The notes beneath the pieces were generated by a model. That model saw only the letters and a program-made list of their open reading frames with translations, was not told the origin of the DNA and did no database searches. 64,000 bases of DNA from Antedon mediterranea (Eukaryota; Echinodermata; Crinoidea; Comatulida; Antedonidae), in the NCBI RefSeq assembly GCF_964355755.1, contig NC_092670.1:2443001-2507000 (forward strand), written 5' to 3'. Shown piece after piece: positions 5,424-62,993 of the stretch. Each line of letters begins with the position of its first letter. Positions within the stretch are counted from its first letter, which is position 1. The position numbers and the translations under genes were made by a program.

Positions 5424-8400
5424 CTACAGAAAAAATAAATATTAATTAAATTAATATTTCACTTGAAAACAATGGCCATACAATATGTAAACACATCTTA
5501 GTCTTCAGTGTTATTTGAGTCCTTTCAGGTTTATGAAGTATTTATACAAATGAATTATACCAACAGTAATATTGTACTGTATAACAAAATTAACTTTCGG
5601 TCAAGGTCATCACGGAGTCACTGGCATGACCAAGACTACTGAAAACAGCCAAAACGTAGCAAGTGAGTACTTGATAATTGGTTTATCCAAAGTTAAATTT
5701 TTTATACAGTATTATTTTGAAACCAGGTGAACCAACAGTAATATTTTCACTTATTCTATTTTATTTCATTCCTTCCAACAGCGAAAGAAATATTTTGTAG
5801 TCATCTGTATTTAAAAGTAAATTCCCATAAATTCATAGCGATAAATATGCCTATGTAAATATCAAAACAGATAGAGTGTGTAACACGAAAATATACGAGA
5901 TAACAAAACAAGAAGAATGGAGTAAAAGAATTAAACGAAGGAGACTAAAATGGTATGGACACATAATTAGATTACCGGATGATACCCCAATCAAACAAAC
6001 AATGAAGGAAACTAACAGGAAAGTAAAACGACCCGTAGGAAGACCAAGAAATATCTGGATGAATCAAATAAAGAAAGACTTACAAGGACTAGTAGACACT
6101 AACACAATAACAAACCATCCTGCCATAAACAGAAAAAAATGGAAACAAATTGTGGAAAGCGTAATGTCGGAAGACGGAAAACGTTAGCAACAACAAGCAT
6201 ATCAAAATAAAATCAAAAAATATAATGTCCCTAGAGTTTCAACCCAAAAAAATCTCAATATTTTTAATGGTAATGATATTTGGAGTGACAAAAAGTAAAT
6301 TTTGTTTTTATAGTGCTAGTCATTCAAAACACTGAAGTCTAGGTGTACAGTACGATTTTTGTTGTCACTTAAACAACATTGATACCAAAAGATAGTTATT
6401 TCAATGTTTTATTACCTTTTCCTTAGTAAAGAATTAATAGTAGAAGTTTTTCCGACTCCCTCAAGACCTACAAAAATAACTCTGCCTTGTTTAACTTCAG
6501 TTTTCCCTTCTTCCAGGGCTTCATTGTATGCTTTAATTGCTTCTGGTCCTCGAGCCTGTATCTCCACAGGAGTTAAATCTTGAAAACATAGTAGTTTACA
6601 ATTAGTATAAAATAAATATTTTAATTCTTTGAATTGATCAGAAAATATTTTAATTCATTGAAAGATTGTTCAATCACTATTAGAATACATCAGATTTTGG
6701 CTGCACTGAATAAATTATACATGGCATGCTCTATGTTTGTTTTGGTGGTGCAAAATATGGCAAAAATATATATGTGTAATAAATGCATTGTGTATTGAAT
6801 TATTCTCTCCTTTTTGGTAATGAATGTAAACAATTAAGTGGGTCAAAAATGAAAAAAATTAAAATGTGTTTCATAATTTCATTTTAGCTGTTGAATAGGA
6901 GGAAGCATGCTTCAAGCACAACACTCCTAGATCAACCACAGAGGGATATCTTTCTTTCAAATATTGAAATTCTTTCAAATATTAGATTGTGTATATAAGG
7001 AGGGACGACAGTGACGGGCTTGTTAGGGTCTCTATGTTGTCCCTCAACCAAATGTTGTTTTATTTGCTTGTTAGTGTGTGATTTTAGTCGAAATAAATGT
7101 TGAATTGAAATGAAATACACCCCATTGCTCATGCAACTGTGCTTGTCAATATAATGATACAGTAACCTGTTAGATTTCAATGTAGTATGTCAAGTGTCAA
7201 CAGGCTAAAAATGATAAATAAATATTACAATAACTTACTATCAATATTGCTTTGTAATTCTCTGTTCGAATATTCTCTTTTAATGTGTCCCACAGTGGTG
7301 CTGAGATCTTTATCTCCAATATCTAATGCAACTCCTCTTTTGGAACATTCTTTGAGCACATGATTGAATACATCACCTGATAGATTGCAATCTATCATAC
7401 CTAGAACCCTCAGTTTAGGAGACATAATCAACAAAGAAACCAGTAAAGTATCATCAATGTTGAAGAGATTGTTACCAGAGATATCGAGGCATTCTAATGC
7501 TAATTGAACTTGTTTGTGTGAACATTCTGAAACCATGTGATTGATGACGTTACCTGATAGATTGCAATCACTCATGTAAAGCCACACCAGCTCAGGAGAC
7601 ATAAAGAATAATGAACACAGTGAAGTACCATCAATGCTGTGAATATTGTTACCCGAGATATTGAGTTGATATAATGCTAATTGAACTCGTTTGAGAGAAC
7701 ATTCTGAAAACATGTGATTGAATACATCACCTGATAGATTGCAATTACTCAAGTCAAGCCACATCAGATCAGGAGACATAATGAATAATGAACACAGTGA
7801 AGTACCATCAATGCTGTGAAGATTGTTACCAGAGATATTGAGATAATATAATGCTAATTGAACTCGTTTGAGAGAACATTCTTTAACCATGTTATTCATT
7901 ATGTCACCTGATAGATTTTGAATCTTAACTTCCTTACGTTTAGCTCCAATACCTAAGATATGTGCAATAACTCTTCCCTTGTGCTCCAATGCCATCCTAC
8001 TACAAAAGGTATTAAAAATGTGATTCTTTTCAGAAGTATATGCATTGTCAACATATTCCATGGCATAAAGTTGCATAATTAGACGTATGAAGTGCCCATC
8101 ACATTGTACACCTGGACTAATGTGATCAATAAACATCCTTATGGAGGTAGATATATCATCCAAATGTTTATTTATTTCCAATTCTTTGGTGGTCATATCA
8201 TTAATTAATTCATTAACCACTGCATCCTCATGTTGTTTTTTAACCAAATTGAAATTACTTGGTAGAGAGCGATATGTTGCTAAATGATTTGTAATCCAAT
8301 GCTTTAAAAATTCACCTGCGTTGGCACCAAGGAAACCAATTGCAAACTCTCTCGCTCTGTATAAATGCTCACTCTCTCTTATCACCTCCCACTCATCATC

Positions 8401-44208: not shown

Positions 44209-44990
44209 TAGAACACGATAAGATCTAACTTGGGTGACTGAGGTGGGACCCCTACATTTAACACATTCAGACTAGGTGGGTACTAGAACATAAGATAAGA
44301 TCTAACTTGGGTCACTGAGGTTGGACCCCTACATTTAACACATTCAGACTAGGTGGGTACTAGAACATAAGATAAGATCTAACTTGGGTCACTGAGGTTG
44401 GACCCCTACAATTAACACATTCAGACTAGGTGGGTAATAGAACATAAGATAAGATCTAACTTGGGTCATTGAGGTGGGACCCCTACAATTAACACATTCA
44501 GACTAGGTGGGTACTAGAACATAAGATAAGATCTAACTTGGGTCACTGAGGTGGGACCCCTACATTTAACACATTCAGACTAGGTGGGTACTAGAATATA
44601 AGATAAGATCTAACTTGGGTCATTGAGGTGGGACCCCTACAATTAACACATTCAGACTAGGTGGGTACTAGAACATAAGATAAGATCTAACTTGGGTCAC
44701 TGAGGTGGGACCCCTACATTTAACACATTCAGACTAGGTGGGTACTAGAACATAAGATAAGATCTAACTTGGGTCATTGAGGTGGGACCCCTACATTTAA
44801 CACATTCAGACTAGGTGGGTACTAGAACATAAGATAAGATCTAACTTGGGTCACTGAGGTGGGACCCCTACATTTAACACATTCAGACTAGGTGGGTACT
44901 AGAACATAAGATAAGATCTAACTTGGGTCACTGAGGTCAAACTCCTACATTTAACATATTCAGGCATAGTGGTATTAGTAACCTACGAAC
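44209..44990. repeat. 77-bp tandem repeat, 10 copies
   Basis: AGATCTAACTTGGGTCACTG recurs exactly every 77 bp from 44221 to 44914. The unit also has GGACCCCTACATTTAACAC and TCAGACTAGGTGGGTACTAG. Copies are nearly identical; the first and last diverge. Confidence 0.93.
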
Positions 44991-45712: not shown

Positions 45713-46275
45713 TCAATTATCTAAACTTGTCAATGCATTAACTTCATTAATCATTTCATATTCCCTAAGTTTCTCAATGAATTCATTCATCTTCTCTCCT
45801 TCTGTGAGATACCCTTCCATTTCTAATCTTAGAATTAAAGAATACGGATCAGTTACTTCACTAATGCCATAAAATCGTCCAATGGTTTTCATGTTTTTAA
45901 AGCTTACCTTTTTACAAAATTTTAACAATTTTATACGATGATCTGAAAAGGTTTCAATTTGAACATCTTCAAATTTTGGTACATGCCATTTTGGCTTTAT
46001 CACTTCTTCAACACCACCCATCCCACACAATTTAATCAATTGGATTAGAACACGTATGTCAGTACATTTGATAACTCCAGGAAGGATAAGCAAGCTAATT
46101 AGTTCATGTGTATTTTCCGCCCCCTGGATATCGAAAAGTGTCATTTCACAATTCGGCCTATTCATGAAGTCGCTAATCACCATTTTCATCTTGTTTAAAC
46201 ATTTTCCTCGGCCATGTGTGTCACACCAATTAGATACCCCTGTTATCAATTCGTTGAAGTCCGGGCGTGACAATT
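45713..46275 (-). CDS. Last exon of the NACHT-ROCO gene: C-terminal death-fold-like region
   Basis: Exon entered by TTTTAG at 46276 in phase 1, open to a stop at 45713, 187 residues. It is all-helical in composition. The end (DPYSLILRLEMEGYLTEG, then MNEFIEKLREYEMINEVNAL) resembles the last helices of a DED, and the first half (LSRPDFNELITGVSNW...) may be a second copy of such a fold. This assignment is inference; a plain helical tail is also possible. Confidence 0.6.
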
Positions 46276-49200
46276 CTAAAACAAAGATAGTAGACGAGTT
46301 TATAAATTTTAAATGACGTATTTCTCGTAGTGTGAATGGTGAATTTGACCATTAACTCCAGATTCATATCATTTCATAGGATAGGCCCAGCTGATGTACA
46401 CATTTAATTTTGTAAAAAGTGTCGTCGACAATATATATATTTCCAATACATTTACTGTAATTCAACCAATGTAATTGAGGTATTGGGCAGAGTCAGAGTC
46501 AAAACCTATACAGAGATAAATTAATTGCCTTTTGGAATTAGTTTGAACACTGATATGAGGGTATGTTCAAATCCATGGAGTTATGCTTTCATATCACAAG
46601 CAAGGTTATATTATAATTATCCTCTGAAGTGTCAAGTTTCCGGTATGCAAGAGTAAATTTTATTTCAAAATCATTGGTGCATGACTTTCATATCGTAAGT
46701 GTTGTACACTAATCTTGTACCTCAAGCTGTAGTAACAAACAAAAGGTCATTATTGTATCAGGTGGCTTCTACCAATCTTTTACTGGTTCAGACTGCATGG
46801 AATCCTATGTCGTGTATAATACGAACACAACCCTGTAGGTCTAAATATGCCCTGAATGCTTCTTCAAACAATGCACAGTAATTAATGTCAAAGAAAACAA
46901 TTTAAAGGAGGGACAAACTGGTTTGAAAACATGAACAATGCGCAAATTAAAATTGTAATGTCTCAATTTACAAATTGTGACAATTGCCACCACTCAAATG
47001 TTACATTTGAAAAAAATGCATTGAAAATTGTCAACAAGTGTGTTCATTCAAGCCAAATTGAATTTATATTAGGAAATTGTAACATTTGTAATTTTAAATA
47101 CCTGTTAGTTTTATTTGTTTTTCTTTAGGTCTTTCCTCCACAACATTCTTCTGAAACTTATCAGCAAGATCTTTTTGTCCATGTTCTCTTAGAGCCTCAC
47201 ACAATACATCAAGTTGATTCAGTTTACTACTAATGTTCCTCCAAAATTTCAGAATTTCTTCTGGAGATTTCATAGTTGTAACTTCAGACAATTCCAAGCC
47301 CAAAAGAACACCTAACTGTTCACAGTTAACAGTTTCTTCAGATACTTTCCAAATAATTGAATCATCCACATAACCTTATAAAATAGCAAAAATTAAGATA
47401 AATTCATCCAACAGTAAATGAATTGATTAAGTTTTCAAATATATGATCCTTCAATTTAGAATGTCATAATAAAATCTACAAAATCATTACCTTGGAGATG
47501 AGACTGTGGCGGTATAGCTGTAAAAATAGATATGTATTTATCAACAAAATGTTCACAAAGTATTATTTGTTTGAAGATTGTTATTAGTTATTACAAGTTC
47601 TACAGTATGTTATACATATATTATTAAAAATGTACCCAAACTGTTTATTCTTAAAATTTACTTACATTCAACATCAGTCTGTGAAGTAGCTATAAAAAAG
47701 AAATAAATATTAATTTATCAATAAATGTAATTTCATCTTATATGGTATTACCATAGCGAAACGTATTGTTGCATTAATGTGCATATGGCTGAAAAAATAT
47801 TGTACCGTCCATTTCCCAATTTTTAATTAAATGCTTTTTATTTTAATATTAAGAACAGTAAAATATTTGACAAAGCAATAAATCTGGTTACTTACATCTT
47901 GGTATTACTTTATTTCCAAATAATTTACGGTAAAGTTTCACTTTCATTTGATTGCTTCCACAAGGTAACACATCTTTGTCAAACTCGCGAATAACATGCA
48001 TGTGAGCATTTTGAATGTTTGGACTACATGCACAAGGGATGTACATCCTTACTTCAAGACCTCGTGCTCCAGTCTGACTGAACACTTTTAATTCTGTTTG
48101 AAGGAAACGAAGCACCTAAAAAATGGCATTTTACAAAATGTTTAAAATACTGGAAAATATAAAATCAATATTCTCAATCAATATTACTATGAAAATTGAA
48201 TCCTAAACAAATGTTGAATAAATGCAAATTATTTTAACAATGGTGGCCTTTTATTATAGGATAAAAAGTACTTATTATATTAAAACACTTTATTTATATT
48301 ATTTTTATGAATAGTTTTAAAGTAATATTCCTAATGAAATCTTTCATAGATTGTTCACTCATAAATATTTAGAACTAAAATTAATGTATTCTGTATATCT
48401 CTTTTGTTTGTTACCACTATTTACTATTACCTTCTTACAGACTTTAGGCTGTGGTTTCTCATCTTTTGTACGCTGCCGTTTTTTTTGCTTATCAGTATTG
48501 AAGCTCTTTGTTCTGACTATTGTTGTCTACAATATCAAAATGATAAAAATTGTTAGTGGTAGTTTTTTAAAATTTATTATTTCAATTTTATGTGGTGGAA
48601 ACAATTATAAATCTCACTCATTTTAATATTGTACAATATATACACTTTAAAATTCTTGAGCTTTTCCAACTTGTATCAATTATTGATATAAAGTTTGCGA
48701 TACACCACGTATATTAGTTTCTATTGAGTTTCTCAAAGTTTCGATCAATATGCTTTGAACGTCCTCAGGAGTCACAATGCAGGAAGTCCAGGAAAGTGGG
48801 AATATAAGTGAAATAGGTTGGGGCTGGTGTGAAAGCTACACATTTACCTGTAACATACGACAATGCTTAATGGTAGCCACATATAAAATGACTTGATGAT
48901 TGGCATCAATGTTCAATTCTACATGCTCATAGGATAGGTGCCCAATTCCATAGTCTTCCATTTGAAATTTCTCAATGAACTTTGTTGCAGCACGTTGGAA
49001 AAGATCGTCTGGAAGATAGCTACCAAAATCATGAAATAGAGAAATTGCACGCTTTTCTTCAAATTTAGGTGGTTGTGAGGCATGTGGTTTCAAACGTGAA
49101 AGAACGTAGAACATTTTTTCATTATTCTGTGTAAACAAAAAATTATTTAAAAACTAGTAGATCTGTAGGCTATATATAGGCTAGAAAATTAAAATATTAA

Positions 49201-52200
49201 TATGACATTAGTATCAATACCTTTGTATTTTTTTGTTCACACACTAATCCAAACTTTTGCATGAGAGACACAAAGAATGTTAATGTCTCATCAGAATCAC
49301 AGATCTTCTCCCACAGATGTTTTAGCAATCCACCTTTTAAAATGCCTTTTTCCAGCATCCTCCAAGCTGGTCTCATAGCTGGTACCTATTATTTTACAAA
49401 AATAGAATATAATTAAAATTTTAATTTATTAATTCAGAGTAACATTGGTAGGCCTATAATTGATTTTTTTTTCTGTTCTAATATATAAACATCTCATGAC
49501 CTGTAGGCTATGTTTTGTTTGTCTTTATTGCAGTTCACAATATTTATGGTAAGCAGAATGACAAAGTGGATTTGTAGACTCATGTCTGCCAAAGCTACTC
49601 AGGCCAAGTTGAAATAATGTATTGATCTTTGAGTTCATATGATTGTATGATGGGTACCTATATCTCAGAGAAGTTATTTCCAATCAAAATTTCAAACATT
49701 TATTAAACAAATTTAATTTTGAAGCATGTCATTATGTTGCTGCACGTCAGTATGCAAAACATTGTTTTGTATTGAAATATATTTATTGCTAACCATATCT
49801 TTATTGTCTATGACAGTGATGATTGTCTTAAACATGTCAACTAGTTGCATCAAATCTACAACTATTATATCTCTTAGTGCCTCATCATCTGGGTAATAGA
49901 GAATCACGCCGATGTCATGTAAATACTCAAGCAGAACTTTGTGACCTTCTGTTACTTTACAGACTTCTTTGAGTACTTCATCTTGAATCTGTTAAAAAAA
50001 TAGATTGATTAAAACCATATGACAATTCTAAAACAGATGACAAATTTCGTTTTTGTAAAAGCACAAGTTAACGGAGTACTTACTCGAACGTTTCGATCTC
50101 TATCAGAGATCCTTCTCAACTGACTGCGGAGTGTTAATGCAGCTTGGTCATTCTTGACGTCATCTGTTGATGACGTTGTACGCCTCCGGTTGTAGGTTGG
50201 AGGTTGTGCGGGGCTCGGCCAGGTGATGTGTCTATCAAATCATTGTACAAATGCGAGAGTTCGTGGGCTCCAGTGTCCCGGTTCATGGTCTTCTCTTTAT
50301 TTCTCCTTATATGTAATGATTCTCTAATCTGTCTGTCTTTGCGTTTAGGCTCTTTGGTTAAGATGGTAGCCTCCCAGTTCGGTACATGATTGTGTTTTAT
50401 GACATGTTCTTATAAACACGCTTGTGGACAGAGCTGAGAAGGTAGTGGGAGATATGGATTTGAGGAAAGTTGAGATGGATAACATCAAGAAAGCGTTACA
50501 CAACTGCCAGTATCCAGAGTGGTCCTTCCAGAGAGTTATGGAAAACCGAAAAAGGAAAAAGAACAAAGGACACGAACCACAGAAGGAAAAGATCAAGATG
50601 CGAGGTAGCATAGGAATCCCCTATGTAAAAGGAATGGCAGAAAGAATACGACGCACTCTCTCCTATCACAATGTCGGAACCTATTTCCTACCCCAAAATA
50701 AAATCAAGAATAGCCTCGTCCACCCAAAAGATAAAATCGAGAAGATGGATACATGTGGAGTAATCTACGAAGTCACCTGCCGCAACTGTCCACAAGTTTA
50801 TATTGGGGAAACAGGAAGGGCATTACAAACACGAATTAATGATCACAAAAAAGATGTTACAACAAACACGGGGGGAGTAATGACTAGGGCCTCCAGAACA
50901 TCCACATCTTCGATCATACACAAATCTGCCATTACAGAACATGTCATAAAACACAATCATGTACCGAACTGGGAGGCTACCATCTTAACCAAAGAGCCTA
51001 AACGCAAAGACAGACAGATTAGAGAATCATTACATATAAGGAGAAATAAAGAGAAGACCATGAACCGGGACACTGGAGCCCACGAACTCTCGCATTTGTA
51101 CAATGATTTGATAGACACATCACCTGGCCGAGCCCCGCACAACCTCCAACCTACAACCGGAGGCGTACAACGTCATCAACAGATGACGTCAAGAATGACC
51201 AAGCTGCATTAACACTCCGCAGTCAGTTGAGAAGGATCTCTGATAGAGATCGAAACGTTCGAGTAAGTACTCCGTTAACTTGTGCTTTTACAAAAACGAA
51301 ATTTGTCATCTATACAAAATCGAAGCTAAATGAAATTCTTTCAAGAATTCTAAAACAATTATAATAAAAAAACAGTTTATTTAATATACTATCAATTTTC
51401 AAATAGTCTTCTGGATTACAAAACCTGCTCTGAAAACATTGTGTACTAGTATATTTAGAATGTAATTCCTCTATTTTTTATATTTTCCCAACTTTAATGT
51501 AACAGTACATAGTTATAAATACATACTATAGAGATTTAACTTTATATATCAAGTACATCTACTGGTGAATATGGTAGTTGACTGAAAGCTTAATATATTT
51601 ATTTATTCTGTCTTTATACTGAACTAGATGGTACGCTCGCTTCGCTCGCGTACCATCTAGGTCGTGCCCACAGATGGTTCTCGAATACATAATAATTTCA
51701 GCGTTAAAAAACTGGCGATTTCAAATGTACGTACCGCAAGACCATAATACATGTCGTGTACAGGAACGAATAAATAGACACTGTGATTTATGTACTCAAC
51801 TAAAATCAGCACCCTATTACTTCCGAAAGAGAAACTTGTCACAAATAAGACCAATTGTTTAAGTCAAATTTAAACAAACTTAATTTGTGTTTTGTATGTA
51901 ACATTAGGGTTGAGGGATGGGGAAGAGGATGGGTGCAAAGAGGAACAATGTTAAAATATATTCTTTATCCATTTAGTAACGAAATATTAATTGCTTTCAT
52001 GTTTTACAAATAATATACCACTAAACACAGTAAAACATTGCGATGTAATACTTTGTTGAAACTATCACCGTCCTAGTCGATTGAAATAGTACAGCACATG
52101 TAACGATACATCACTACGACGTGTATATGTTTATAATATAATGTAAAACAATTTGTGAAAACCACCTCTATTCGGGGAAAATCATAAATTCGATTTAATC

Positions 52201-55200
52201 GTCAATAAATATTAAATTATCTAACTCAACTTAATTAGTAGGCCTAATGGTTTTCAATTGTTTCTTAGAGCCAATTCATACTTAAGTTGGTTCCTACCCT
52301 ACCCACCAAAGTTGTTCTGCGTTTAGGGCATGTGATGTACCGTAGGCCTATTCTCTACTGGTTTTACAACGCTACTCATGCCAGTGAGGGAAAGGTGATG
52401 ATGTGGGTGGTTTAACTGCAATAATAAAGATTTGTACATAATATACGGCGAGTGAAAACGCTAGCTCATTATCCGTTTAAAAAAAAATTATATCCAACCT
52501 CTGCAGCACAGATTGAAAACAAAAATGGATCGAATTTCGAGTATACAGTACTGTACTTGCCTTTATATTACGACGCCTGAGGGAATAGACACTTGTGAAA
52601 CAGAGATTGGAATGTTCCATTCATCGCAAATCAATACATTTGTATAATCGTATATTAAATCTATCAAAATAGTATTTTTTTAAGAAAATCGGCCTGTCTT
52701 CAACATTATGATGCTGTACTCTAGCTGTTCAACCAGTTTTCAGCTATTAAAAACAATTATCATAGGAGGAGATAGGAAAATGCGAAGCCTCCTCGTATTT
52801 TTGTGGCGGGTATTTTTCAAGATGGACATCCATTAGACAGTGTATACCACGATCGGAAAACACCCCTATTTGGGGCAAATCGTTGAACCTAAATTCGTTT
52901 TAATCGTCAATAACTAATTACCTAACTCAATTTAATTAGTAAACAGGGTTACATCAGATGGTTAAAATCAGTACCGAAAGTATGAACCAACTTTATATAC
53001 CATCGAGTAGAAATTCTAGAAATAAACCGAGATTTACCGAATTTTGCCCTTACGTAAATTTATATATAGATGACACTTTCAGTGCTAAAGCATTGATTTC
53101 CAAAGTGGTTCAGTAGAGAAAAATTAACAATATAATAAATAAAAAGTAATTTACATTAGTAGACACATTTACAAAAAGGTAACTATCTACAAAACATACA
53201 GTATATATAAAAAAAATGGAGGGAATTAAAGGTAAAAGGTACTTAATCAGTAATAATATTAAAATCAATCCAAAATATTATTTTGGATTGAATTTTTAAA
53301 AAGTGTCATAGATTTAATATAAAAAAAATAATTGTTTTATTCAGGCCTAGGATTTTAATGAGGAATTTTATTTTTGTGCCTTAATGCTATGTGTGATTAT
53401 GCTATTTTCACTACAACCATCTGTATGCAAATTTGGTGGAATGGTTATGTAACCAGCCTTTCAACTAATAACAATAGTTTCAGTTGACTAACAATAGAAC
53501 AGCAATGCCAAAAACAAACCTCCAAAATTTAATGGAGTGGTCCTTGACTACATATCTATCTGTATTTTCATTTTGGTAAAGGTCTTTCAATAACTTTTGA
53601 GTAATCCTGCTAACAAACAAACAAACCGACAAACAAACAGACACATGCGATTGACTACATAAACCTCCTTGGCGGAGGTAAATAATTGATTGGTAAGAAA
53701 ATGTTAATATGAACCTATAGATGGCTATAAATTTACCTCTTACATCACACCACCTGTACATTTTCAGATGATTAAAAAGTAGCAATGTATACCGAAAATG
53801 GAGATCTGACTAATCAATATAGAAAAAATACTGTAAACCTTATTTGTGAATCTTTCTTTATAAAAGAAATTGCCACATTATTAATAATTCATTCAATTAT
53901 TAATATTGAACGCTATTGTCTATAAATTCTTGCACCTAACCTCAGAAGTTGGTAAATAGATGTGCTTCTTTCTGCTGTGGATTTCTTGTTGAACTCGCAG
54001 CCATTTTATTGGCAAAGTGCGAATCATTTTCTTTGACAAATCCAGTATTTGTTTCATGATGGCAGAAGCATTGCTCTGTTCAAATGGTACACTGTTTTCA
54101 ATGGTAAAAATAGTTGAACACACCATAGTTTCATATGGTTTGTCTTTTAGGGCTTCCCAAATTTTATTTTCTATTTCTTTAACCTGAAAGAAAGAAATAC
54201 ATTTGGTATGTAGTTTCTAATATTTCTTATTTTAATCAGATTAATTAGAATAATCAGACTATTTATATAGTGATTGCTAAACGTTGTGATCCAGTTTTAG
54301 GATTAAAAAAATAGAAGATTGAATCCACTGCCTATGAAAAAAGTTTCTGCATTGTTGTGTCATGGTGATTTCTCTATGGTAGAGTCAACTCACCTGTTCT
54401 TTCCTTTCTTCTTCAGTTCCTTTAAGGCCATTTAAATGTGTACCTATCAGTAATACAGGAGGACAAGGCTGACCATTTATCTTTGCGTCAGGTCTACTGT
54501 TTGTGTATATAGACTGAATCCAAGAAAGAATGAACTCCAGATTTGTCATTCGATGGTCATAATTGTTTCCCTAAATTTTATAAGTATATATGATAACAAA
54601 AAAATGTTTGTAGAACACTCAATTTTAATTTCTTTGATCATGTATAATACTGTATACAACAATTGAAAAAAACGTAATTGTTCAATCTATTGTTATTCAT
54701 TTATTCAGTAATGGAGGAAAAGAATGTTCATTTATTAATGTAGTTTGTGTTGAATTGTCTATGGATAAAAAGATGTGAGAAGCTAATTGATAAGTCTTAA
54801 AACTTTAAGATGTGTTCAGAGCAAAGGTATACATTTTTCACTATAAAGCAATCACAATCAAGGAATTGAAAATAGTGTTTAAAAACTAATAAAATTCAGC
54901 TTACAGTTGTTGGATCCAAAACTTTAGCTTGGGCATCGAGATCATCACAAAGGTTGAATACTACGCATACAACAGCAAAAGATACCATGAAGATCTATGA
55001 GATCAATTAAACAGTGTATTAAAAAAATGGTGAATATAAAAAAATGCTTGATTATCAATGGAAATGCAGTGTTTGTTTTTCATAGTGTTTTAATTTTTAG
55101 ATTAAAAAAATAGCTGAGTCTAGACTACTACTAAATTTATTACAGGTTTGCCATATGATAGATATTTGTTGCTAGAATTCATAAGAATAATATTTTACTT

Positions 55201-58200
55201 GTTTATTTTTTTACTACTGTATATTAGTGTTGTCTTATTAGAGGAATTGTGGGGAATATAGTTATATTACCATGCTGGGTCATGCAGGCTCCATGCCGGC
55301 ATCAGGTAAAATATCCAGTATATACCAGCTGAAAGTTGGTATATACTGGATATTCCGATCCCTGCTGTAGATAGTTATGCTGGTAACGATACAGGCAGTG
55401 GCATAACGCAGAGGCCTGATGCCCCTGGATTAGGAACCCCAGGCCCTCCAAGGCTGGAGGCCTAGGGCGTTTTTAGCCCTTTTTGACATATTTTAATGCC
55501 TGTATTTTCCTCTGGACACTGCCCAGGGCCCCCACATGCTCCGGGGCTCCTGGTTTTAGCCAGTGAGTGTTCATAGCCATTACGCCACTGGATGCAGGCA
55601 TCATTGGTCTCTTGAATTTGAATTGGTTGTTGTTTTTTGGCAGTTGGTGAGCATTCAATTATTTCCCTGTTTACCATTCAGAATCTCCTCCTGAATGCTA
55701 CCAATGATCTGAGCATTTACACTACCATTCAAAATATCTCCCTGAATTTTTATTTATTTATTTATTTAGGTTTAAAAAACACATACAAAACAGCAGCCAT
55801 TGGCTGATAACGTTTGTTTACAATCAATATACATATATAATTAAAAGTAAAAGAGGCACAATTACAAACAGCATAGAAAAATAACTATATATTATAAAAC
55901 ACAAAATACAGTATTATTCGTTCATAAAATTGAGTACGTCATTATTATTATTATTATTTAAGATTATTATTAGTATATAAATTATTAAAATTATTATATA
56001 AAAGGTCGAAACGGCATCGAGAAAGTGAGAAATAATCATGGAAATCAACCCATATCAGTTAGCATTAATAAACTTAACAATCGTAGGTATGGCAGACCTT
56101 TGGTATCGTTCAGTTTTACACCTGGGGGGGAAGGAGACTTCCGGTACTAGTTGTATTAGACCTAAGGGTTCTCTTCTGCCCGCGGCAAGGAGGTAGGGTG
56201 TCACGAAAGCTCAGACCACGAAAGCTCAGACCCCAAGACCTAAGATCACGAAAGCTAAGACCCAACACCTAAGATTACAAATACTAAGATATACTACAGC
56301 TTAAAAACAATACTTGTTTATCCATACATAATTTTAAACACAGTAGGTTTCATTTATTACCATAAATATAATTTAATACTACCGCAAAACATAGATAAAC
56401 TCACATTATTTTCGCCCGTTGAGTAAATGTATATTTTTTCTTTACAACAAACAAACTTGACGGGTTGTTTGTTGGTATATATTTACTCCATTGTGTTGGT
56501 TCAGAGGATGTTTTTCTTACGCACCTGCCTTTCTTGTATTTTGACTCCAAATTTGTTGGCTAACTTTATCCTGAACACCACACTTTAAAATTAGGACTTA
56601 TAAGTACTTTCAGAAGGAGAAACACATAATAACAAATAAATAAATCCTTTAAATTGATGATTTTACAGATGTGTTTCTTTGTATACTGTAATACTAATGT
56701 AACTCCTCGAGCTACCCATGCTCAATGTTTTTGTTTCTATGGAGCGCCAAAAGAGCAACAATAATAGTACAAGTATAAAAACAGAAAGAAAACGAAACAA
56801 AAAAACTTATCATGATTTTTAAATTAAAATTTATTTGCCAGTATTTATTTCTTCGTACTTACATGATTATACTATTATCATTACAATTTTAATTTTACAT
56901 TGTTCCATCCACACTGTAGATGGACTCCACAGAGTTTTCAGCCCTCTATATAATTTTTGCTCTTTTGACGTTCCATAGAAACAAAAACATTGAACATGGC
57001 CCATGGGGTAGGCCTACTGTACTGTAGGCTAGTCATTTTGTGTGCGAGAAAAACGTCTGTAAAATCATCAATTTAAAAATGTATTTGTTACTTTTTATGT
57101 GATTCTTTTTCATGAAAGTGCCAATTCTAAGGTGTGGTATTCAGAATAAATGTTGGGAGTTAAAATACAAGGCAGGTGCGAAAGATAAATATTTGTAATC
57201 TTAGGTGTTGGGTCTTAGCTTTCGTGATCTTAGGTCTTAGGGGGTCTGAGCTTTCGTGGTCTGAGCTTTCGTGACACCCCAAGGAGGTAGCATGTCTCGA
57301 AAACAGTTGGACTTAAGTAACCCCCTCCCAAAGGACAACACAAGAGTGTCTCTCCTTGCCTCGAGAGAAGGTAACCCTGTAACCTCTAGGGCATTGTCAT
57401 AGGAAATGTAGGTAGCACCTAACATTATTCGACATGCTCTTTTCTGGATGGTCTCAATGCTGCTGGCCATTTTTTTGGTAATAGCACCATGCCATACCTG
57501 GCAAGCGTATTCCAAGATGGGCCTATAATACTGGCATTTTGCTTCCACGCCTGTGAGAAAAGGGCTTTATGTACTTACCCGCTGCATCACATGATAAATT
57601 TGTTGTCCTCCGAAATCCCAGATGTTCATCACAAACTTGTCGCTAGTCACCTTGTCATCACTCCCTTCTTTCTGAAACTCAACTATTAATTTTTCAATTT
57701 CTGACGGAATCTTTATCTGGTCATCTCTTCCTTCTTTCTCAATCTCTATCTTTGAAGGAATCTTTGTCTGGAGTTTTTCTTTCTCTATATATTCATTAAA
57801 ATAAATTAAAATTAAACATCCAATAGCATGTTTAATATGTATGTCATTTTTCTAGGCCTTTTATTAGGATAATTTATTTTAGGATTCTAATTATTTTAGC
57901 AATGGTGATTATAATTATTAATTAATATAGAAAAGTGCATTGTTAGCCAAGATCCCAACAGAATAACACATTGTCTGATGATTTCAGGTTCCAAATTAGC
58001 TTCCCTAATAATTCTACTCGGCTTTTCGTTCCCTACTCAAAAAGAAGAGTTGTCGATATAGTGCCTTTGCAATTGCCACGTATCTTGAAAGCACTCTTCG
58101 TCAATTAGTGAGGATGGAATTTTAAGATATTCGTCTTTCATTGAATTTGTTTTGAGGATTTTTGTATAATATTTATTTTGTTTAATACTAATATACAAAT

Positions 58201-61200
58201 ATAGTTAACAGAGCTAAAGCTAACAGAGGTGCCTTGAAAATAGGTCTGGTTGTGTTTTAGACACAAAGGCCCATAGTTTTAATGAAACAAAGTTTGAAAA
58301 AAAATTTGAAATAGGCAAAGTATATAAAACATTAAAAGACACTAACTGTTCTAAAATCTTTAATTAAATTAATCCACCTTTTCCATCTTAAATCAAATAT
58401 GAAATTCCAGGCCACAAGTCAAAAACCCATGTAAAAGTCAGTGCTTAGTTTTGGTAGAGCAGACAGTGAAATATTAGGTGAAATGTAATAATAATGCACT
58501 TAAAATTCCTATTAACATTTTTACTTACCGTCATCCATTTGGCTTTCTTCTGTTTTAGTTGATTGTGCTGGATTTTCTTTCTCCATATGTTTCACAAGTG
58601 TTTTTTGGGGAGAATTTTCATTGCCAGAAGGCTGTTTTGCTGATGCTGTTGTAACCTCTGCTTGTAGCATACTATTCTTGTTATCAGAAGCATTTTCTGT
58701 TGATGCTGTTTCACGTTTTTCTTCTCGCACATCACCATCAGAACCATTTTGCTTTTCTTTCAGTTGTTTTGCCACATTTCTAGCAACTGTTTCCTCATAC
58801 ATTTCAGAAGCTTGAGCTTTAAAAAAATAAAAATTGATTTTGTATATTATACTTGGATACTATGAATATGTTAATTATTATTAAACATTTTAAAAGGAAG
58901 AAACACACATATCCATGGTAATTACAGAATAAATCTAGTTCTGTGTTGTACCAAAAATAATTTAGGTAAAAAGAAGCAAGGTAAAAAGAAGCAAGGTAAA
59001 AATGGTATCAAATTATTTTAAATTTGTTTAAATTAAAGCAGTAATCAAGAAATTGTATGTAAAACAGATTATTATATAAATAACATCCATAAAACATGAC
59101 AATATAACTTCATAATCAGATTAAAGAATTAAGGAATTTCTGTGAAGCAGCTTTCATCAGATAGCTGACAGCGCAGCAAGAAAAATATGGGAGGCTTTGT
59201 CAAAAAAGAAATGTTTGCAAACGTGTGTTGATAAATGTTGGCTAGTTTCGTAAGTATACTTCTTTAAAAAAAATTCAATTTCCAGTAAGCAGAACAATAA
59301 ATGCAAAATAAACATGGGCGGATGGAGTACCATGAAAATTGCCAATAGTACAAACAATTAAGCACTATCAAAGTGGCTCTCCAATACTTCAAACCAAAAA
59401 AATATATAAGGGTAAGGGGGTTAACAGTATTAAGTTTCGAATAGTACTTGGAATCCAGCACAACACATTTTTAAACAGGATAAAATGGAACAAGTCTGGG
59501 ACAAAGTCTTTGGTGCTAACTGGGTTAATAATTTAGTATTTTGCATCTTTTTTTGGTTTAATTTGCATGTTAATGTATACTTTCTGTTTCTTGCCATATT
59601 GTTTCATCTGCATCATCTTGAGAACACACTGTTTTTGTTGTTGCTATGGCATCAGTTATTTCATGCTTTGATTTAAAACTACAGAAAAAAATGAATATTA
59701 TTATTTCACTTCAATAGCCATACAATATATATAAACCCATCTTAATCATTCAATGTTATTCAAGTCAGCCTTTTGGGATTATATTAATATTATTATTAGT
59801 GTATTTATAACAAAAATGAATATACAAAGAGTAATATTTTTCAGTTGGCTCATAAAGTATGTTTTGGTGTCATCAGTTAATTAAAAGTAAATTCCCATAA
59901 ATTGATAATGATAAAATGCCTACAATTGAGAAGAATATGTTTAAATGCATATTAAAACTAAAATGTACACATAGATTATGTCCCGAGAGTCAAGATAGAT
60001 TTTCAACTCAAACCCCTCTCATTATACTTTAATAGTAGTGATATTTGGGGGAAAGCAAATATTTTTGGTTTTTTTAATTATTTGTCATTCAGAGCATTGG
60101 GGTCTTGGTGTATGTTTTTTTTTCTGTGGTCATTTAATAAATTGTTTTAAACAACATTGATACCACAATTTTCTTACCTTTTCCTTAGTAATGAATTAAT
60201 AGTAGAAGTTTTTCCTACTCCCTCAAGACCTACAAAAATAACTCTGCCTTGTTTAACTTCAGTTTTCCCTTCTTCCAGGGCTTCATTGAATGCTCTAACT
60301 GCTTCTGGTCCTCGAGCCCGTATGTCAATTGGAGTGGAATCTTGAAAAAATAAGTATTTAATAGTAGTTTTACAATAAAGTTATTATATATTTATTATTA
60401 CTATGCATTCATATTGGACACTTAATTAATACCGCTCACTTTTTTAAATCTTTGTAATCCTTGTTAATTTGCTTTTAGAATGATTTTATAATACACAATT
60501 TGTATTGGTTATTTAATTAAAATAACCGATACATTTTATTTTGTAAATAACAGTTGATAATAATAATATAAAATAGAATACTTTAAAAAATACCAATATC
60601 TTACCATCAAAGTTGCTGAGCCTTTGTAATATACTTGGATGCTGTAACATTGTAGTAGTACCAAGAAAACCTACTGCAACCTCTCTTGCCACCTTTAGAT
60701 TCTTACTTTCTCTTATCATCTTCCATTCCTTATCATCCAAAGGAGTAAGTAGTTGCCTTACATCTCCTGTACTTTCACTCTCTGTGTGTTCACTTTCACA
60801 TAATTTACACAAGTAAAATCCTACCAATAACTCTGCTATCAACTTGTGAAGAGGCATGAATATCTTACCAAAGTTTCTTTTGTTAGAAATCAGTGCTTTA
60901 TCATAAACAAATCCAAGTTTCAGGGCCATTTCCGCCATGTCGAAGTTACCTGCAGCTACTAGATTAATTCTGCTTATTGAAAGTTGATTTTCTTTCAAGC
61001 TGTTATACATACACTTTCCTAACAAAATCATAGCGTTTACATATTCAACTGGAGCGTATTCAAATTTATAAATATGTTTAGATGTTAGATATTTAACATT
61101 AAACTCATTCAAAGTACAGCGAATTATTTCTTTAAAAAGGTCAGCATTGTTTTCAGGAAGACTTCGACGGTCTTCCCACAGTACACAGATCGTTTGAAGG

Positions 61201-62371
61201 AACATTGGATTTTTGCACATTAAATATACTTCTGGATGTTTTTGCCTGGCCCATGTGCCAATACCTAATTCTTCTCTGAGGGATTTTCCCAATTCTGGTT
61301 TTCCAAAATACTCAAAGTGTTTTTCAATATACACGCCTATGCTCTTGTCATTAAATCCCTTAACCCTTACATGTACATCACATGCTTTTATGAATTCATC
61401 TATGTTTTCTGATATTGATGTAAATATCACACTACAATAGTTCCTCTTGAAAAGATGGATTAAGCTTTGATTATTAAATCTTAATTCATCTAATCCATCT
61501 AGTAGCAGCACAATCTTATGATCATTTTTATAGATGAATCGTTTAATCAAAGATGAATCTTGTGGGAGTTCTGTGTTCAAAATAAAATCTGTCATATCCA
61601 GTTGCTTCGCAATCAGATCAATGATGCTTTCACCTCTTTCTAAATCTCTAACCCTTAAAGGAAACACAATTTTACCTTTAATTGATAATGATAATTGCCT
61701 TAATATTGTAGTTTTACCAATTCCTCTTTCACCATCTATAAGAGCTATACATCCATGTGTGGAGCTGATCACATCTACCACTTCTGTTAATGTTGTTGGT
61801 TTGCAGCCTTCATTGTTTTTAGTTTCTTTGCGTAGTTCCAAATCAGTGAAACACATCTGCGACATGCTAACATTGTATCTACCAACCCTTTTTTCTGGTG
61901 TAAATGTACTGGCCCGACTGCAGAATTCCTTTTGTCTTTGAAACAGATATTGTTCTATCTTTACTAAATACAAAAAAAAATTTTTTGCTTGATTAAACTA
62001 TAATATTTAGTATCGTTTTATTAATTCTTTTTTTATTTATGTGGTATTTCATAAAGTTAATTCCTCAAACTATTATTTCTTTTAAATAATTTTAATTATC
62101 TAACTTAAATTAAAAGTTTATTGTAATGATTTTTGTTACGCAGTCGTACATAAGCTTTATAGAGTGAGTGTGACCCAATATAATTTATAGAAATAAAAAA
62201 TATAAAACCGCAATTAAAAATATGCTCAAACAAGGGCAGAAAACAAAGAAAATATGATTTTTACAAAGCATTTTTAGGATAATAAAAATTAAGTTCCACT
62301 TTAGAGTAAATAATATTGATCTAAAATTTTGTTTGAGTGTGAAAGTGGAATTATTCTATTAAAAAATTTTA

Positions 62372-62450
<79 letters not shown>

Positions 62451-62575
62451 TATAGATATAAAGTAATGAATTAGTTTAGTAGTTCAAGGCTACCAAATAT
62501 CTATAGTTCTTGTTAAACTTTGTTATACAACAGAAGTAGATGATACTTTCTAAATGTATTACCTTCGCTCTCCAT
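45713..62575 (-). CDS. NACHT-Roc-COR-Death domain protein, 18 coding exons, 1492 codons
   Basis: Spliced by eye. Exons (minus, high to low): 62575-62563, 61963-60605, 60340-60178, 59678-59581, 58816-58529, 57784-57579, 54994-54905, 54570-54394, 54183-53941, 49988-49794, 49385-49221, 49126-48848, 48526-48431, 48115-47896, 47689-47666, 47517-47491, 47374-47102, 46275-45713. Every junction has AG/GT and matching phase, and the total of 4479 nt divides by three. Domains: NACHT (P-loop about residues 82-90, Walker B 157-164); Roc GTPase (P-loop 495-502, DFGGQ 697-701, G4-like GTHLNG 782-787); COR about 800-1200; Death domain about 1215-1305; a C-terminal death-fold-like tail. By family knowledge this is a cytosolic STAND/ROCO signalling protein, likely in innate immunity or cell death; ligand unknown. 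Weak points are the first exon (MESE...) and the donor at 59580. Introns carry several transposons but the reading frame is open throughout. Confidence 0.85.
46300..47095. other. Intron between the Death-domain exon and the last exon
   Basis: No gene or repeat recognised. Short ORFs on the plus strand (46699-46881 and 46931-47128) have no motif. Confidence 0.4.
47102..47689 (-). CDS. Exons 15-17 of the NACHT-ROCO gene: two micro-exons and Death domain
   Basis: Micro-exons of 24 nt (47689-47666) and 27 nt (47517-47491) each add whole codons in phase 1 and could be skipped without frame change. Exon 47374-47102 encodes a Death domain: IWKVSEETVNCEQLGVLLGL, then LSEVTTMKSPEEILKFWRNI, then LDVLCEALREHGQKDLADKF. 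The Trp, the LGL turn and the final L..L...GQ.DLA.K helix are the family's conserved features. Death domains recruit adaptors by homotypic contact. Confidence 0.8.
47896..48526 (-). CDS. Exons 13-14 of the NACHT-ROCO gene: basic linker and Cys-containing C-terminal COR segment
   Basis: Exon 48526-48431 encodes a Lys/Arg-rich linker (KQKKRQRTKDEKPQPK). Exon 48115-47896 encodes FLQTELKVFSQTGARGLEVR, YIPCAC, HVIREF, VLPCGS and a short strand, resembling the Cys-containing end of the post-COR region in invertebrate ROCO proteins. It ends in phase 1 at T|GTAAGT, which fits the two micro-exons that follow. Confidence 0.75.
48848..49988 (-). CDS. Exons 10-12 of the NACHT-ROCO gene: COR domain
   Basis: Three phase-0 exons (49988-49794, 49385-49221, 49126-48848). 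They encode LLEYLHDIGVILYYPDDEA and VVDLMQLVDMFKTIITV (COR-A), then a helical bundle with WRMLEKGILKGGLLKHLWEK and FFVSLMQKFGLVCEQ. Then come FYVLSRLKPHAS and GSYLPDDLFQRAATKFIEKF (COR-B). The order matches COR domains of MFHAS1-like and LRRK-like proteins, where COR mediates dimerisation with Roc. Confidence 0.87.
50036..51345 (+). mobile_element. Penelope-like retroelement, 5'-truncated, with inverted arms
   Basis: A 12-bp target duplication AATTCTAAAACA at 50024-50035 and 51346-51357 brackets the element. The first about 375 bp (50036-50412) are the reverse complement of 50935-51311, the inverted-arm arrangement known for Penelope-like elements. It inserted in the intron between exons 9 and 10 of the NACHT-ROCO gene, antisense to it. 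Confidence 0.8.
50424..51212 (+). pseudogene. Penelope-like C-terminal region with GIY-YIG endonuclease
   Basis: An open stretch of 262 codons lacking the RT core. It has MRGSIGIPYVKGMAERIRR, then the GIY-YIG-like endonuclease GVIYEVTCRNCPQVYIGETG, RALQTRINDHKKDV, and the downstream ITEHVIKHNHVPNW. The IY...YIG pair with following Arg and the CxxC upstream match Penelope endonucleases. The last part runs into the inverted arm. Confidence 0.8.
51624..53070 (-). mobile_element. Helitron-like non-autonomous element, copy 2
   Basis: On the minus strand A|TCTATATATAAATTTACG at the 5' end and hairpin-CTAG|T at the 3' end (palindrome 51624-51660). Flanking A and T fit insertion between A and T without target duplication. 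It is colinear with 3008-4449. No coding capacity. It lies in the same intron as the Penelope-like element. Confidence 0.6.
53071..53940. other. Intron sequence with a SINE-like repeat
   Basis: No gene. 53555-53700 contains AACAAACAAACAAACC and CCTCCTTGGCGGAGGTAA, a short repeat familiar from marine invertebrate genomes. The rest is AT-rich intron. Confidence 0.4.
53941..54183 (-). CDS. Exon 9 of the NACHT-ROCO gene: Roc end and start of COR
   Basis: Phase-0 exon of 81 codons. After STIFTIENSVPFEQS it has LPIKWLRVQQEIHSRK, the start of COR; IPIKWL followed by a helix is the familiar Roc-COR boundary of metazoan ROCO proteins. Acceptor TTTCAG|GTT at 54184, donor GAG|GTTAGG at 53940. The following intron is about 4 kb and contains a Helitron-like element and a Penelope-like element. 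Confidence 0.85.
54394..54994 (-). CDS. Exons 7-8 of the NACHT-ROCO gene: Roc strands to G4
   Basis: Two phase-0 exons. 54994-54905 encodes IFMVSFAVVCVVFNL, the Roc strand after switch II. 54570-54394 encodes TNLEFILSWIQSIYTN, the next helix, and PPVLLIGTHLNG, the G4 strand. The G4 motif reads GTHLN where GTHxD or TKxD is usual, so guanine specificity may be altered. Acceptors are CATAG and TTTAG, donors ACT|GTAAGC and CAG|GTGAGT. Confidence 0.85.
55396..55590. mobile_element. hAT-type MITE
   Basis: Ends CAGTGGCATAACG and the inverse of CAGTGGCGTAATGG, flanked by GATACAGG (55388-55395) and GATGCAGG (55591-55598), an 8-bp duplication with one mismatch. The CAGTGGCGTA terminus and 8-bp duplication are hAT features. 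It is inserted inside a Harbinger MITE relative. The open frames across it are not genes. Confidence 0.75.
55960..57548 (-). pseudogene. LINE reverse transcriptase 3' fragment split by an insertion
   Basis: 57548-57290 encodes YRPILEYACQVWHGAITKKM, IETIQKRACRIMLGA and ALEVTGLPSLEARRDTLVL, the CR1/L2-like C-terminal RT signature. After the insertion at 56196-57279 homology resumes at 56185-55960 (CKTERYQRSAIPTIVKFIN) with frameshifts. It is in the same orientation as the host NACHT-ROCO gene, in the intron between exons 6 and 7. Confidence 0.75.
56196..57279. mobile_element. Element G, 1084 bp, 10-bp target duplication
   Basis: Ends GGGTGTCACGAAAGCTCAG and the inverse, followed by repeated ACGAAAGCTCAGACC and ACCTAAGATCACGAAAGCT motifs. 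It is flanked by CAAGGAGGTA at 56186-56195 and 57280-57289. The interior (CTATGGAGCGCCAAAAGAGC and its inverse, and the AAGGTGTGGTATTCAGAATAA block) is shared with E1/E2 although the ends differ. No ORF. A MULE-like MITE is likely from the duplication length. Confidence 0.8.
57579..57784 (-). CDS. Exon 6 of the NACHT-ROCO gene: Roc G3 (DFGGQ)
   Basis: Encodes a Lys/Glu/Ile-rich stretch and then NIWDFGGQQIYHVMQR, the diagnostic Roc switch II. The DxGGQ motif and following aromatic-His pattern are as in MFHAS1/LRRK-type ROCO proteins. The donor CGG|GTAAGT at 57578 is followed after only ten bases by the end of a Harbinger-type MITE, so that insertion stopped just outside the splice site. Confidence 0.88.
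58529..58816 (-). CDS. Exon 5 of the NACHT-ROCO gene: charged insert within Roc
   Basis: A 288-nt exon rich in Lys, Glu, Ser, Thr and Asn, starting QASEMYEETVARNVAKQ, with no globular motif. It enters in phase 1 and leaves in phase 1 at G|GTAAGT. With the first half of the next exon it separates the Roc G2 and G3 motifs by about 170 residues, far more than the few tens usual in Roc domains, so it is probably a disordered loop. Confidence 0.75.
58817..59560. other. Intron between exons 4 and 5, nothing recognised
   Basis: AT-rich. A short tandem AGGTAAAAAGAAGCA near 58970-59000. The ORFs on both strands here have no recognisable similarity. Confidence 0.4.
59581..59678 (-). CDS. Exon 4 of the NACHT-ROCO gene: Roc switch I region
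   Basis: Short exon encoding FKSKHEITDAI and a polar tail. HEITDAI occupies the place of the Roc G2/switch I threonine (the paralogue has TDGI). The paralogous exon uses a strong donor GTAAGT at 5331. Here that site reads GAAAGT, and the nearest usable donor is GTATAC at 59580, which keeps phase 1 into the next exon. Splicing at this weaker site is inferred; reading on would reach a TAA within three codons. Confidence 0.6.
60178..60340 (-). CDS. Exon 3 of the NACHT-ROCO gene: Roc P-loop (G1)
   Basis: The exon joins the NACHT exon in phase 1 and leaves in phase 2. It encodes a short linker with GPEA and EEGKTEVKQG, followed by the GTPase core strand and P-loop GRVIFVGLEGVGKTS. The GxxGxGKT(S) spacing and the hydrophobic strand before it are those of Roc/Ras-like GTPases, distinct from the NACHT P-loop one exon upstream. 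A near-identical exon is at 6416-6578 in the paralogue. Confidence 0.88.
60605..61963 (-). CDS. Exon 2 of the NACHT-ROCO gene: NACHT domain
   Basis: A 1359-nt exon entered by acceptor TATTTAG at 61964-61969 and left by donor G|GTAAGA at 60604. It encodes a NACHT NTPase: Walker A GERGIGKTT, Walker B LLLDGLDEL, a sensor-like VIFTSISE stretch, then a helical region with CKNPMFLQTICVLWED. The exon goes from GFLGTT straight to a short tail (LQRLSNFD) aligned with the extreme end of the paralogous exon at 7239-9671. About 270 residues of post-NACHT helices and LRRs present in that paralogue are therefore missing here, without loss of frame. An open TTG codon at 61973 lies inside the acceptor region and is not a start. 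Confidence 0.88.
62372..62449. repeat. (TA)n microsatellite
   Basis: About 78 bp of uninterrupted TA dinucleotides in the first intron of the NACHT-ROCO gene. Confidence 0.95.
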
Positions 62576-62993
62576 CTTACTCAGTGCTCCTTTTGAAATG
62601 GATGCTATAGTTAGATAAACATATTTTTTTAATCAATTGCTGTTTATAGATGTATGTAGGTTATTATTTAAGATAGTTAGGTAGTAAGATAGTTAGTACT
62701 GTATTTGTTCAAAAAAGTTAATAAAATACCATCATCCGTATTACTTCTACAGTGTAAGGGAATTCTTCGTCCCACTCTGATATTTACCTATTCTAATTAC
62801 ATAATAGTAGTGTAGTCGTAGTTAAGAGTAGACGTGTACTAAATCACTCTCTGTAGCCTCACTACATTCAGCCTCACTACGCGGTGACAGTTCAAATTTC
62901 CCGCAGGACAGTTGTTGTGTTAGGGCACTCCTGTAGCCTAGCATTTACTTGCCGGTGTTTGTCTGCTGTACATGTACGTATTAATACACCATC
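62576..62993. promoter_or_regulatory. Intergenic region between the NACHT-ROCO start and the divergent LINE ORF1
   Basis: About 420 bp. On the minus side the sequence CTATAG|CATCC near 62607 could be an acceptor for a 5' non-coding exon, or transcription may start here. On the plus side it serves as the LINE 5' UTR. No TATA box is convincing. Confidence 0.35.

What the first reader, a model, noticed from the sequence alone, without database searches (positions are those of the whole stretch)
45713..62575. One protein joining NACHT, Roc-COR and Death modules
Eighteen exons splice in frame into 1492 codons with a NACHT ATPase directly followed, one exon later, by a Roc GTPase P-loop, then DFGGQ, COR and a Death domain. 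NACHT (NLR) and Roc-COR (ROCO) are normally separate families. A protein with both nucleotide switches and a death-fold output would be an unusual immune or cell-death sensor. The NACHT-Roc junction is seen twice in the window with the same phase.
Basis: partly seen in the sequence, partly recalled or inferred. Interest (0 to 1): 0.92.

Follow-up and report, generated by a model that had tools for sequence, protein, structure and literature searches.

The report
Immune NLR fused to ROCO GTPase
This stretch of an animal chromosome probably encodes one immune or cell-death protein in which two normally separate nucleotide switches, the NLR-type NACHT ATPase and the LRRK2/DAPK-type Roc-COR GTPase, are spliced together between death-fold domains, as one of five related copies found in the same genome.

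Summary
The exons are real and in frame: a 1492-codon model carries NACHT, Roc and COR-A by Pfam, and a borderline Death domain. There is no RNA, so the joining rests on comparison, which favours one gene. Among 93 NACHT and 136 Roc exons listed (capped searches), five pairs lie within 8 kb; in all five Roc is downstream on the same strand. E3-E12 follow in order in the four paralogs. All five NACHT exons end near an in-frame phase-1 GTAAG donor; 1 of 18 control NACHT-LRR exons does, and 14 of 18 simply close on a stop. I chose this criterion after seeing the copies.

Corrections: the 13-bp exon 1 is doubtful; a tandem death-effector-domain (tDED) exon lies 5.1 kb upstream, outside the window. 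The last exon is itself a tDED (caspase-8/cFLIP fold). This copy and P1 lack the LRRs that P2-P4 keep.

A sponge NLR paper already lists COR among NLR architectures. Verdict: new variant of a known kind (NLR plus DAPK-like Roc-COR-Death tail), apparently one of several modular Roc fusions here, including a pseudo-caspase-Roc. Transcripts would settle it.

The parts
62563..62575 (-).
   Evidence: phase fits; not found in three paralog stretches; tDED exon
60605..61963 (-). E2: NACHT ATPase exon, Walker A GERGIGKTT, Walker B VLLLDGLDEL, no LRR; ends in phase-1 donor ATG|GTAAGA
   Evidence: Pfam NACHT 48.3 bits; paralogs; donor; motifs
60341..60604 (-). 264-bp intron between NACHT and Roc exons
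   Evidence: P1 263 bp, P2 660, P3 972, P4 3951
60178..60340 (-). E3: Roc N-terminal exon with P-loop GLEGVGKTS
   Evidence: Pfam Ras family match 490-534; 136 matches listed in the genome
59581..59678 (-). E4: Roc, between P-loop and switch II
58529..58816 (-). E5: low-complexity insertion inside Roc, between P-loop and DFGGQ
   Evidence: 40-58% identical in P2-P4
57579..57784 (-). E6: Roc switch II, DFGGQ
   Evidence: Pfam Roc 683-723; DFGGQ in 5 of 5
54394..54994 (-). E7 (54994-54905) and E8 (54570-54394): rest of Roc, G4-like motif THLN
53941..54183 (-). E9: end of Roc and start of COR
48848..49988 (-). E10 (49988-49794), E11 (49385-49221), E12 (49126-48848): COR
   Evidence: Pfam COR-A 856-1001, 54.8 bits; genome-wide COR-A list
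47491..48526 (-). E13 (48526-48431), E14 (48115-47896), E15 (47689-47666), E16 (47517-47491); E15 and E16 rest on splice sites alone
   Evidence: E13 found in P1, P3, P4 and E14 in P1, P2, P3
47102..47374 (-). E17: Death domain exon; phase-1 donor G|GTAT after it
   Evidence: Pfam Death 23.4 bits; donor in 6 of 6 copies read, which are three distinct sequences; weak fold support
45713..46275 (-). E18: C-terminal tandem DED exon with stop; assignment to this gene less certain than the rest
   Evidence: profile; model pLDDT 90.4; Foldseek ranks 1-47 of the 50 listed are caspase-8, cFLIP or vFLIP entries
7239..9714 (-). Second copy (P2): NACHT-LRR open frame up to the phase-1 donor ATA|GTAAGT; exact exon start not resolved
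6416..6578 (-). P2 Roc P-loop exon, same phase
   Evidence: further exons, some left of the window

Best explanation
One gene on the minus strand encodes an NLR-ROCO fusion: [tDED] - NACHT - Roc-COR - Death - tDED. Shown here: the exons, their order, frames and domains, and a matching phase-1 donor and acceptor in five copies. Inferred: that they form one mRNA; that an NLR-type terminal NACHT-LRR exon lost its stop, gained the donor and spliced into a DAPK-like Roc-COR-Death tail, this copy then losing its LRRs; that the tDED exon 5.1 kb upstream is its N-terminus. Proposed mechanism, untested: ATP-driven NACHT oligomerisation clusters the N-terminal tDEDs, which nucleate a caspase-8-like DED filament; Roc-COR acts as a GTP-dependent dimer switch that gates assembly; Death and the C-terminal tDED recruit adaptors or give a second seed. 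Without LRRs this copy may be a helper or amplifier rather than a direct ligand sensor.
For: In-frame 18-exon model; NACHT, Roc, COR-A above cut-off, Death exon above cut-off alone; the five NACHT/Roc pairs within 8 kb all in the same order and strand; E2-E12 in order in four paralogs, no stop in aligned stretches; phase-1 GTAAG within 150 nt of the ORF end in 5 of 5 against 1 of 18 controls, 14 of the 18 closing on a stop with no LRR beyond; junction peptides alike; no Met in E3 or E4; NACHT omega 0.30-0.43; tDED exon within 6 kb upstream of 21 of 93 NACHT exons, 1 downstream, 0 on the other strand; tDED fold of E18; Walker A and B, P-loop and DFGGQ present in 5 of 5.
Against: No transcript. 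The five copies are related by duplication and conversion, not five independent events. The GTAAG criterion was chosen after seeing them; by a matrix made from 15 other donors of this gene (3.4 to 10.9) the P2-P4 donor scores only 5.3 and W/P1 7.6, while five controls have other phase-1 GT sites scoring 5.4 to 7.7 inside the coding region. Control L022 (C1:3230936) has the same donor but no Roc exon in the about 15.9 kb read downstream. W and P1 are near-identical at the junction, so they count little as two. The tDED exon is seen upstream of only two of five copies (W, P3); none in about 16 kb above P1, 2.8 kb above P4, or in the window above P2 apart from E18, some 36 kb away. Its donor is G|GTAAAA, not consensus. 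G4 reads THLN where THxD is usual (recalled).
Confidence: 0.68

Rival explanations
1. Two neighbouring genes: an NLR ending at the stop about 30 codons past the donor, and a ROCO gene with its own undetected first exon.
For: Of 136 Roc exons listed only 5 have a listed NACHT within 8 kb; the NACHT frame closes in the intron; L022 has the donor without a Roc found; the donor is not outstanding by matrix score.
Against: 264 bp separate the exons; no Met before the P-loop; phase-1 GTAAG in 5 of 5 against 1 of 18 controls; phases match in all five.
Confidence: 0.2
2. Degenerate copy: the fusion is real in P2-P4, but this locus lost its LRRs and is no longer functional.
For: LRRs missing in W and P1 only among the five; the W and P1 tails are a recent duplicate (dS 0.008 over E3-E12) with little time to decay.
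Against: No stop or frameshift in the W model or in the aligned P1 exons; switch motifs present; NACHT omega 0.38 between W and P1.
Confidence: 0.15
3. Alternative isoforms: the locus makes both a NACHT-only protein, by reading into the intron, and the full NACHT-Roc-COR-Death protein.
For: The frame stays open about 30 codons past the donor in W and about 39 in P1.
Against: W and P1 are near-identical here, so this shows no constraint; in P2-P4 the frame closes about 4 codons on.
Confidence: 0.1

Closest known systems
NLR receptors (death-fold - NACHT - LRR), as expanded in marine invertebrates
   Same: NACHT with Walker motifs; a tDED exon upstream of NACHT recurs in this genome (21 of 93 within 6 kb); three of five fusion copies keep LRRs
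   Different: C-terminal Roc-COR-Death-tDED tail; LRRs missing in this copy
DAPK1-type ROCO proteins (kinase-ankyrin-Roc-COR-Death; architecture recalled)
   Same: Roc-COR-Death order
   Different: NACHT instead of kinase-ankyrin; long insertion between P-loop and DFGGQ; tDED after Death
Sponge (Dysidea avara) NLR architectures listing COR (PMC12909245; passages seen, figure not seen)
   Same: COR is named in the legend of the figure of bona fide NLR (NACHT+LRR) architectures
   Different: Roc, Death and domain order not stated in the passages I saw
LRR-Ras/Roc-COR-TIR of sea anemones (PMC5094078) and TLR/MyD88 with Roc-COR in Aplysia (PMC9334734); passages seen
   Same: Roc-COR joined to immune modules in invertebrates
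   Different: TIR-based, not NACHT with DED and Death

Membership tests
NLR | NACHT domain with Walker A and B | tested here: met
NLR | C-terminal LRRs | tested here: not met
   absent in this copy and P1, present in P2, P3, P4. So NLR-derived, not a bona fide NLR
NLR | N-terminal death-fold effector | tested here: inconclusive
   tDED-like exon with a candidate phase-1 donor 5132 bp upstream; Pfam DED 16.4 bits, below cut-off; splicing not shown
ROCO | Roc followed directly by COR | tested here: met
   order in four paralogs
ROCO | GTPase motifs: P-loop, DxxG switch II, THxD/NKxD (motifs recalled) | tested here: inconclusive
   P-loop and DFGGQ met; G4 reads THLN in 5 of 5
DAPK subfamily of ROCO | Death domain C-terminal to COR | tested here: met
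   exon 23.4 bits, cut-off 22.6; 18.0 bits on the whole protein
DAPK subfamily of ROCO | N-terminal kinase and ankyrin repeats (recalled) | tested here: not met
   no kinase or ankyrin among the 25 of 26 Pfam families shown
Tandem-DED proteins (caspase-8, cFLIP) | two packed DEDs | tested here: met
   for E18, by profile and fold; Pfam on E18 alone gives nothing, and 5 of 9 relatives match DED at E 0.1 or better

The most novel reading that the evidence does not exclude
The genome runs a modular receptor system: phase-1 N-terminal cassettes (tDED, NACHT, NACHT-LRR, pseudo-caspase) are shuffled onto a common Roc-COR-Death-(tDED) chassis, and the NACHT exon is diversified by gene conversion while the chassis stays nearly identical, giving proteins that integrate ATP and GTP switches to seed DED filaments.
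Probability: 0.35. Interest if true: 0.8.

Novelty: new variant of a known kind. Interest (0 to 1): 0.62.

Why it matters
NLRs and ROCO proteins (the LRRK2/DAPK family) are usually studied apart. A natural fusion would say that the two switches can work in one complex and that Roc-COR can stand where an NLR's LRRs usually stand. Because copies with and without LRRs, and Roc genes with NACHT, tDED or pseudo-caspase in front, sit in one genome, it offers a natural domain-swap series to test what Roc-COR does in cell-death signalling.

Tried and rejected
Tried and rejected: (a) E18 as the N-terminus of a gene further downstream: its two closest relatives outside P1 (L025, L026, about 65% identical) also end in a stop without an evident donor, and the Death exon keeps a phase-1 donor in 6 of 6 copies read. 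I keep it as C-terminal with less certainty, because more distant relatives (L010, L027-L029) do end at a candidate donor, and many relatives lie upstream of NACHT or Roc. (b) Roc here as an unrelated small GTPase: rejected, Pfam Roc and COR-A. (c) Naming the species: COX1 search empty; two paper searches empty; one search listed 8 of 16 papers, of which I opened none. By recall about 11 large contigs and 354 Mb suggest a crinoid; untested. (d) phmmer of E18 and of the NACHT exon against PDB gave nothing usable; phmmer of the Roc-to-Death part gave as best matches a leucine-rich-repeat protein (E 1.4e-6) and Rab-family proteins (E 1.3e-5 and worse), with LRRK2 at E 0.19 and worse. (e) The Death model has pLDDT 69.0; its Foldseek matches are weak (best E 0.51), led by Death domains. 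For E18 too no Foldseek match has E below 0.001 (best 0.017).

Rows dropped before counts: 93 of 98 NACHT rows used, the other 5 being second pieces of the same exons. Of 19 controls fetched, L036 held no LRR end and was left out, so 18 were used. Of these 14 close on a stop with no LRR beyond it in what I read; L019, L023 and L035 have more LRR-like sequence after the stop, so their true end is unclear; L022 has the donor. One search used 53 of 136 Roc exons; one search repeated it with all 136 without regard to strand and gave the same five pairs within 8 kb. The random-placement test (8 NACHT and 11 Roc exons of C1, mean 0.31, none of 100,000 reached 5) treats copies as independent, which they are not. 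The lists are capped or scored in part, so counts are lower bounds.
Full report
What was checked. The window is C1:2443001-2507000 of an unnamed 354-Mb genome in 18 contigs. The features of this gene are on the minus strand. Pfam finds NACHT (48.3 bits), Roc (48.1) and COR-A (54.8) above their cut-offs. Death reaches 18.0 bits on the whole protein, below the 22.6 cut-off, and 23.4 on the exon alone. So the described domains are there, Death only just.

Is it one gene? There is no RNA, so I used the genome as a comparative experiment. A search with the Roc P-loop exon listed 136 matches, and one with the NACHT exon 98 rows, 93 after removing second pieces; both lists are capped. Only five pairs lie within 8 kb of one another. 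In all five the Roc exon is downstream on the same strand, all in C1:2.3-3.5 Mb: W (this finding), P1 (Roc at C1:3437573), P2 (in the window, Roc at 6416-6578), P3 (C1:2684281) and P4 (C1:2348012). Exons E2 to E12 follow in the same order in all four paralogs. E13 and E14 were found in P1 and P3; P2 showed E14 but no E13; P4 showed E13, and the held stretch ended before E14 was found; E17 was found in P1 and P3, and a Death exon also at C1:2338118 below P4. No aligned stretch carries a stop.

The strongest evidence is the 3' end of the NACHT exon. In 14 of 18 control NACHT-LRR exons the frame closes on a stop with no LRR beyond it, for example CSIRNITFYH-stop. In P2, P3 and P4 the same exon runs on to ...SNIDS with the donor ATA|GTAAGT in phase 1. 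In W and P1 the LRRs are gone but a similar end...LSNFD with ATG|GTAAGA in phase 1, remains. A phase-1 GTAAG within 150 nt of the ORF end is present in 5 of 5 Roc-linked exons and in 1 of 18 controls. I set this criterion after seeing the copies. A donor matrix built from 15 other donors of this gene does not separate the groups as well: 5.3 to 7.6 for the five, and up to 7.7 for phase-1 GT sites inside the coding part of some controls. The exception, L022 (C1:3230936), lies in the same C1 region; no Roc exon was found in about 15.9 kb downstream. It may have lost its partner, or show that the donor came first. The Roc exon begins in phase 1 in all five, and E3 and E4 hold no Met, so the P-loop needs an upstream coding exon.

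First, the N-terminus. The 13-bp exon 1 was not found in three paralog stretches. A 177-residue tDED-like exon with a candidate phase-1 donor (G|GTAAAA) lies at C1:2510095-2510625, 5132 bp upstream of the NACHT exon and outside the window. Its own Pfam DED score is weak (16.4 bits, below the 35.9 cut-off). But 21 of 93 NACHT exons have such an exon within 6 kb upstream on the same strand, against 1 downstream and none on the other strand (150 of 452 candidates scored). P3 has one about 6 kb upstream. None was found in about 16 kb above P1, 2.8 kb above P4, or in the window above P2 apart from E18. Second, the C-terminus. E18 (46275-45713) has no Pfam hit alone, but a profile of nine relatives has caspase-8 and cFLIP tDEDs as its best PDB matches (E 0.0008), and its model (pLDDT 90.4) finds caspase-8, cFLIP or vFLIP entries at Foldseek ranks 1 to 47 of the 50 listed (best E 0.017, TM 0.67 and 0.72).

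How the copies evolve. W and P1 are nearly identical from the end of the NACHT exon through E18 (dS 0.008 over E3-E12), yet their NACHT exons have dS 0.48; the break falls inside the NACHT exon, near window 60,800-60,900. P3 and P4 show a similar mosaic: E3-E12 dS 0.026, NACHT 0.42, with a block of about 900 bp at 62-91% identity inside the NACHT exon, flanked mostly by 92-100%. NACHT omega is 0.30-0.43 in the six pairs, so this looks like conversion among constrained copies rather than decay. It also means that the five copies are not independent witnesses.

Modularity. Other close Roc copies have other modules upstream: four tDED-like repeats in L004, a tDED in L010, and in L009 a caspase-type exon (Pfam Peptidase_C14, E 1.4e-43) with a phase-1 GTGAGT donor 347 bp before the Roc exon. 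Its catalytic His and Cys appear replaced by Asp and Ser, judged against recalled caspase motifs. So a Roc-COR-Death chassis seems to take different phase-1 N-terminal cassettes. For these I did not test the joining as I did for NACHT, and in L002, L003, L005, L006 and L012 I recognised no upstream module by eye.

How it probably works. Walker A and B, P-loop and DFGGQ are present in 5 of 5 copies, so both switches may be active, though THLN stands where THxD is usual (recalled). From known NLR and DED biology (recalled) I infer that NACHT oligomerisation clusters tDEDs to seed a caspase-8-like filament and that Roc-COR gates it by GTP-dependent dimerisation. None of this is tested here.

Known or new. 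Searches for NACHT with Roc-COR, ROCO, Ras of complex and C-terminal of Roc gave no NACHT-Roc-COR-Death protein in what I saw. I saw passages of six papers (PMC12909245, PMC8195603, PMC5094078, PMC9334734, PMC7159879, PMC5903030) and only listings of the rest; one search listed 20 of 73, among them an echinoderm NLR paper (PMC13133943) that I did not open. PMC12909245 lists COR in the legend of its NLR architecture figure, so NACHT with COR is not wholly unreported. Most subscription papers are not in the library. I file this as a new variant of a known kind.

Noticed in passing
L009 (C5:22075600-22084600, minus), oriented 7376-7964: Caspase-type exon with apparently replaced catalytic His and Cys (cFLIP-like by recall), phase-1 GTGAGT donor, 347 bp upstream of a Roc exon: a possible pseudo-caspase-Roc fusion.
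   Followed up: partly
C3:11.9-12.6 Mb, C3:19-25 Mb, C4:16-19.7 Mb, C9:13-15 Mb, C5:12-14 Mb: Many Roc-type exons, often with identical scores, in dispersed clusters with no listed NACHT within 8 kb.
   Followed up: no
C11:4.57-4.65 Mb and C11:17.55-17.60 Mb: Clusters of ORFs, many about 960 codons long, whose Roc match is split in two parts about 1.2 kb apart: perhaps a GTPase with a large insertion.
   Followed up: no
P3 versus P4, oriented 5594-6490 of C1:2674000-2692800: A divergent block of about 900 bp (62-91% identity) inside NACHT-LRR exons that are otherwise mostly 92-100% identical, suggesting conversion with another NACHT copy.
   Followed up: partly
window 40000-43853 and 44217-44963: Tandem arrays of 66-bp and 77-bp units just downstream of the gene; part of the 66-bp array is an open frame.
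   Followed up: no
window 50403-51212 (+), 57237-57566 (-), 62985-63779 (+): Transposable-element-like reading frames (GIY-YIG-like, reverse-transcriptase-like and LINE ORF1-like, judged by eye) in introns or near the 5' end.
   Followed up: no
L022, C1:3230936-3232258: NACHT-LRR exon with the fusion-type phase-1 donor but no Roc exon found in about 15.9 kb downstream; a possible intermediate or orphan.
   Followed up: partly
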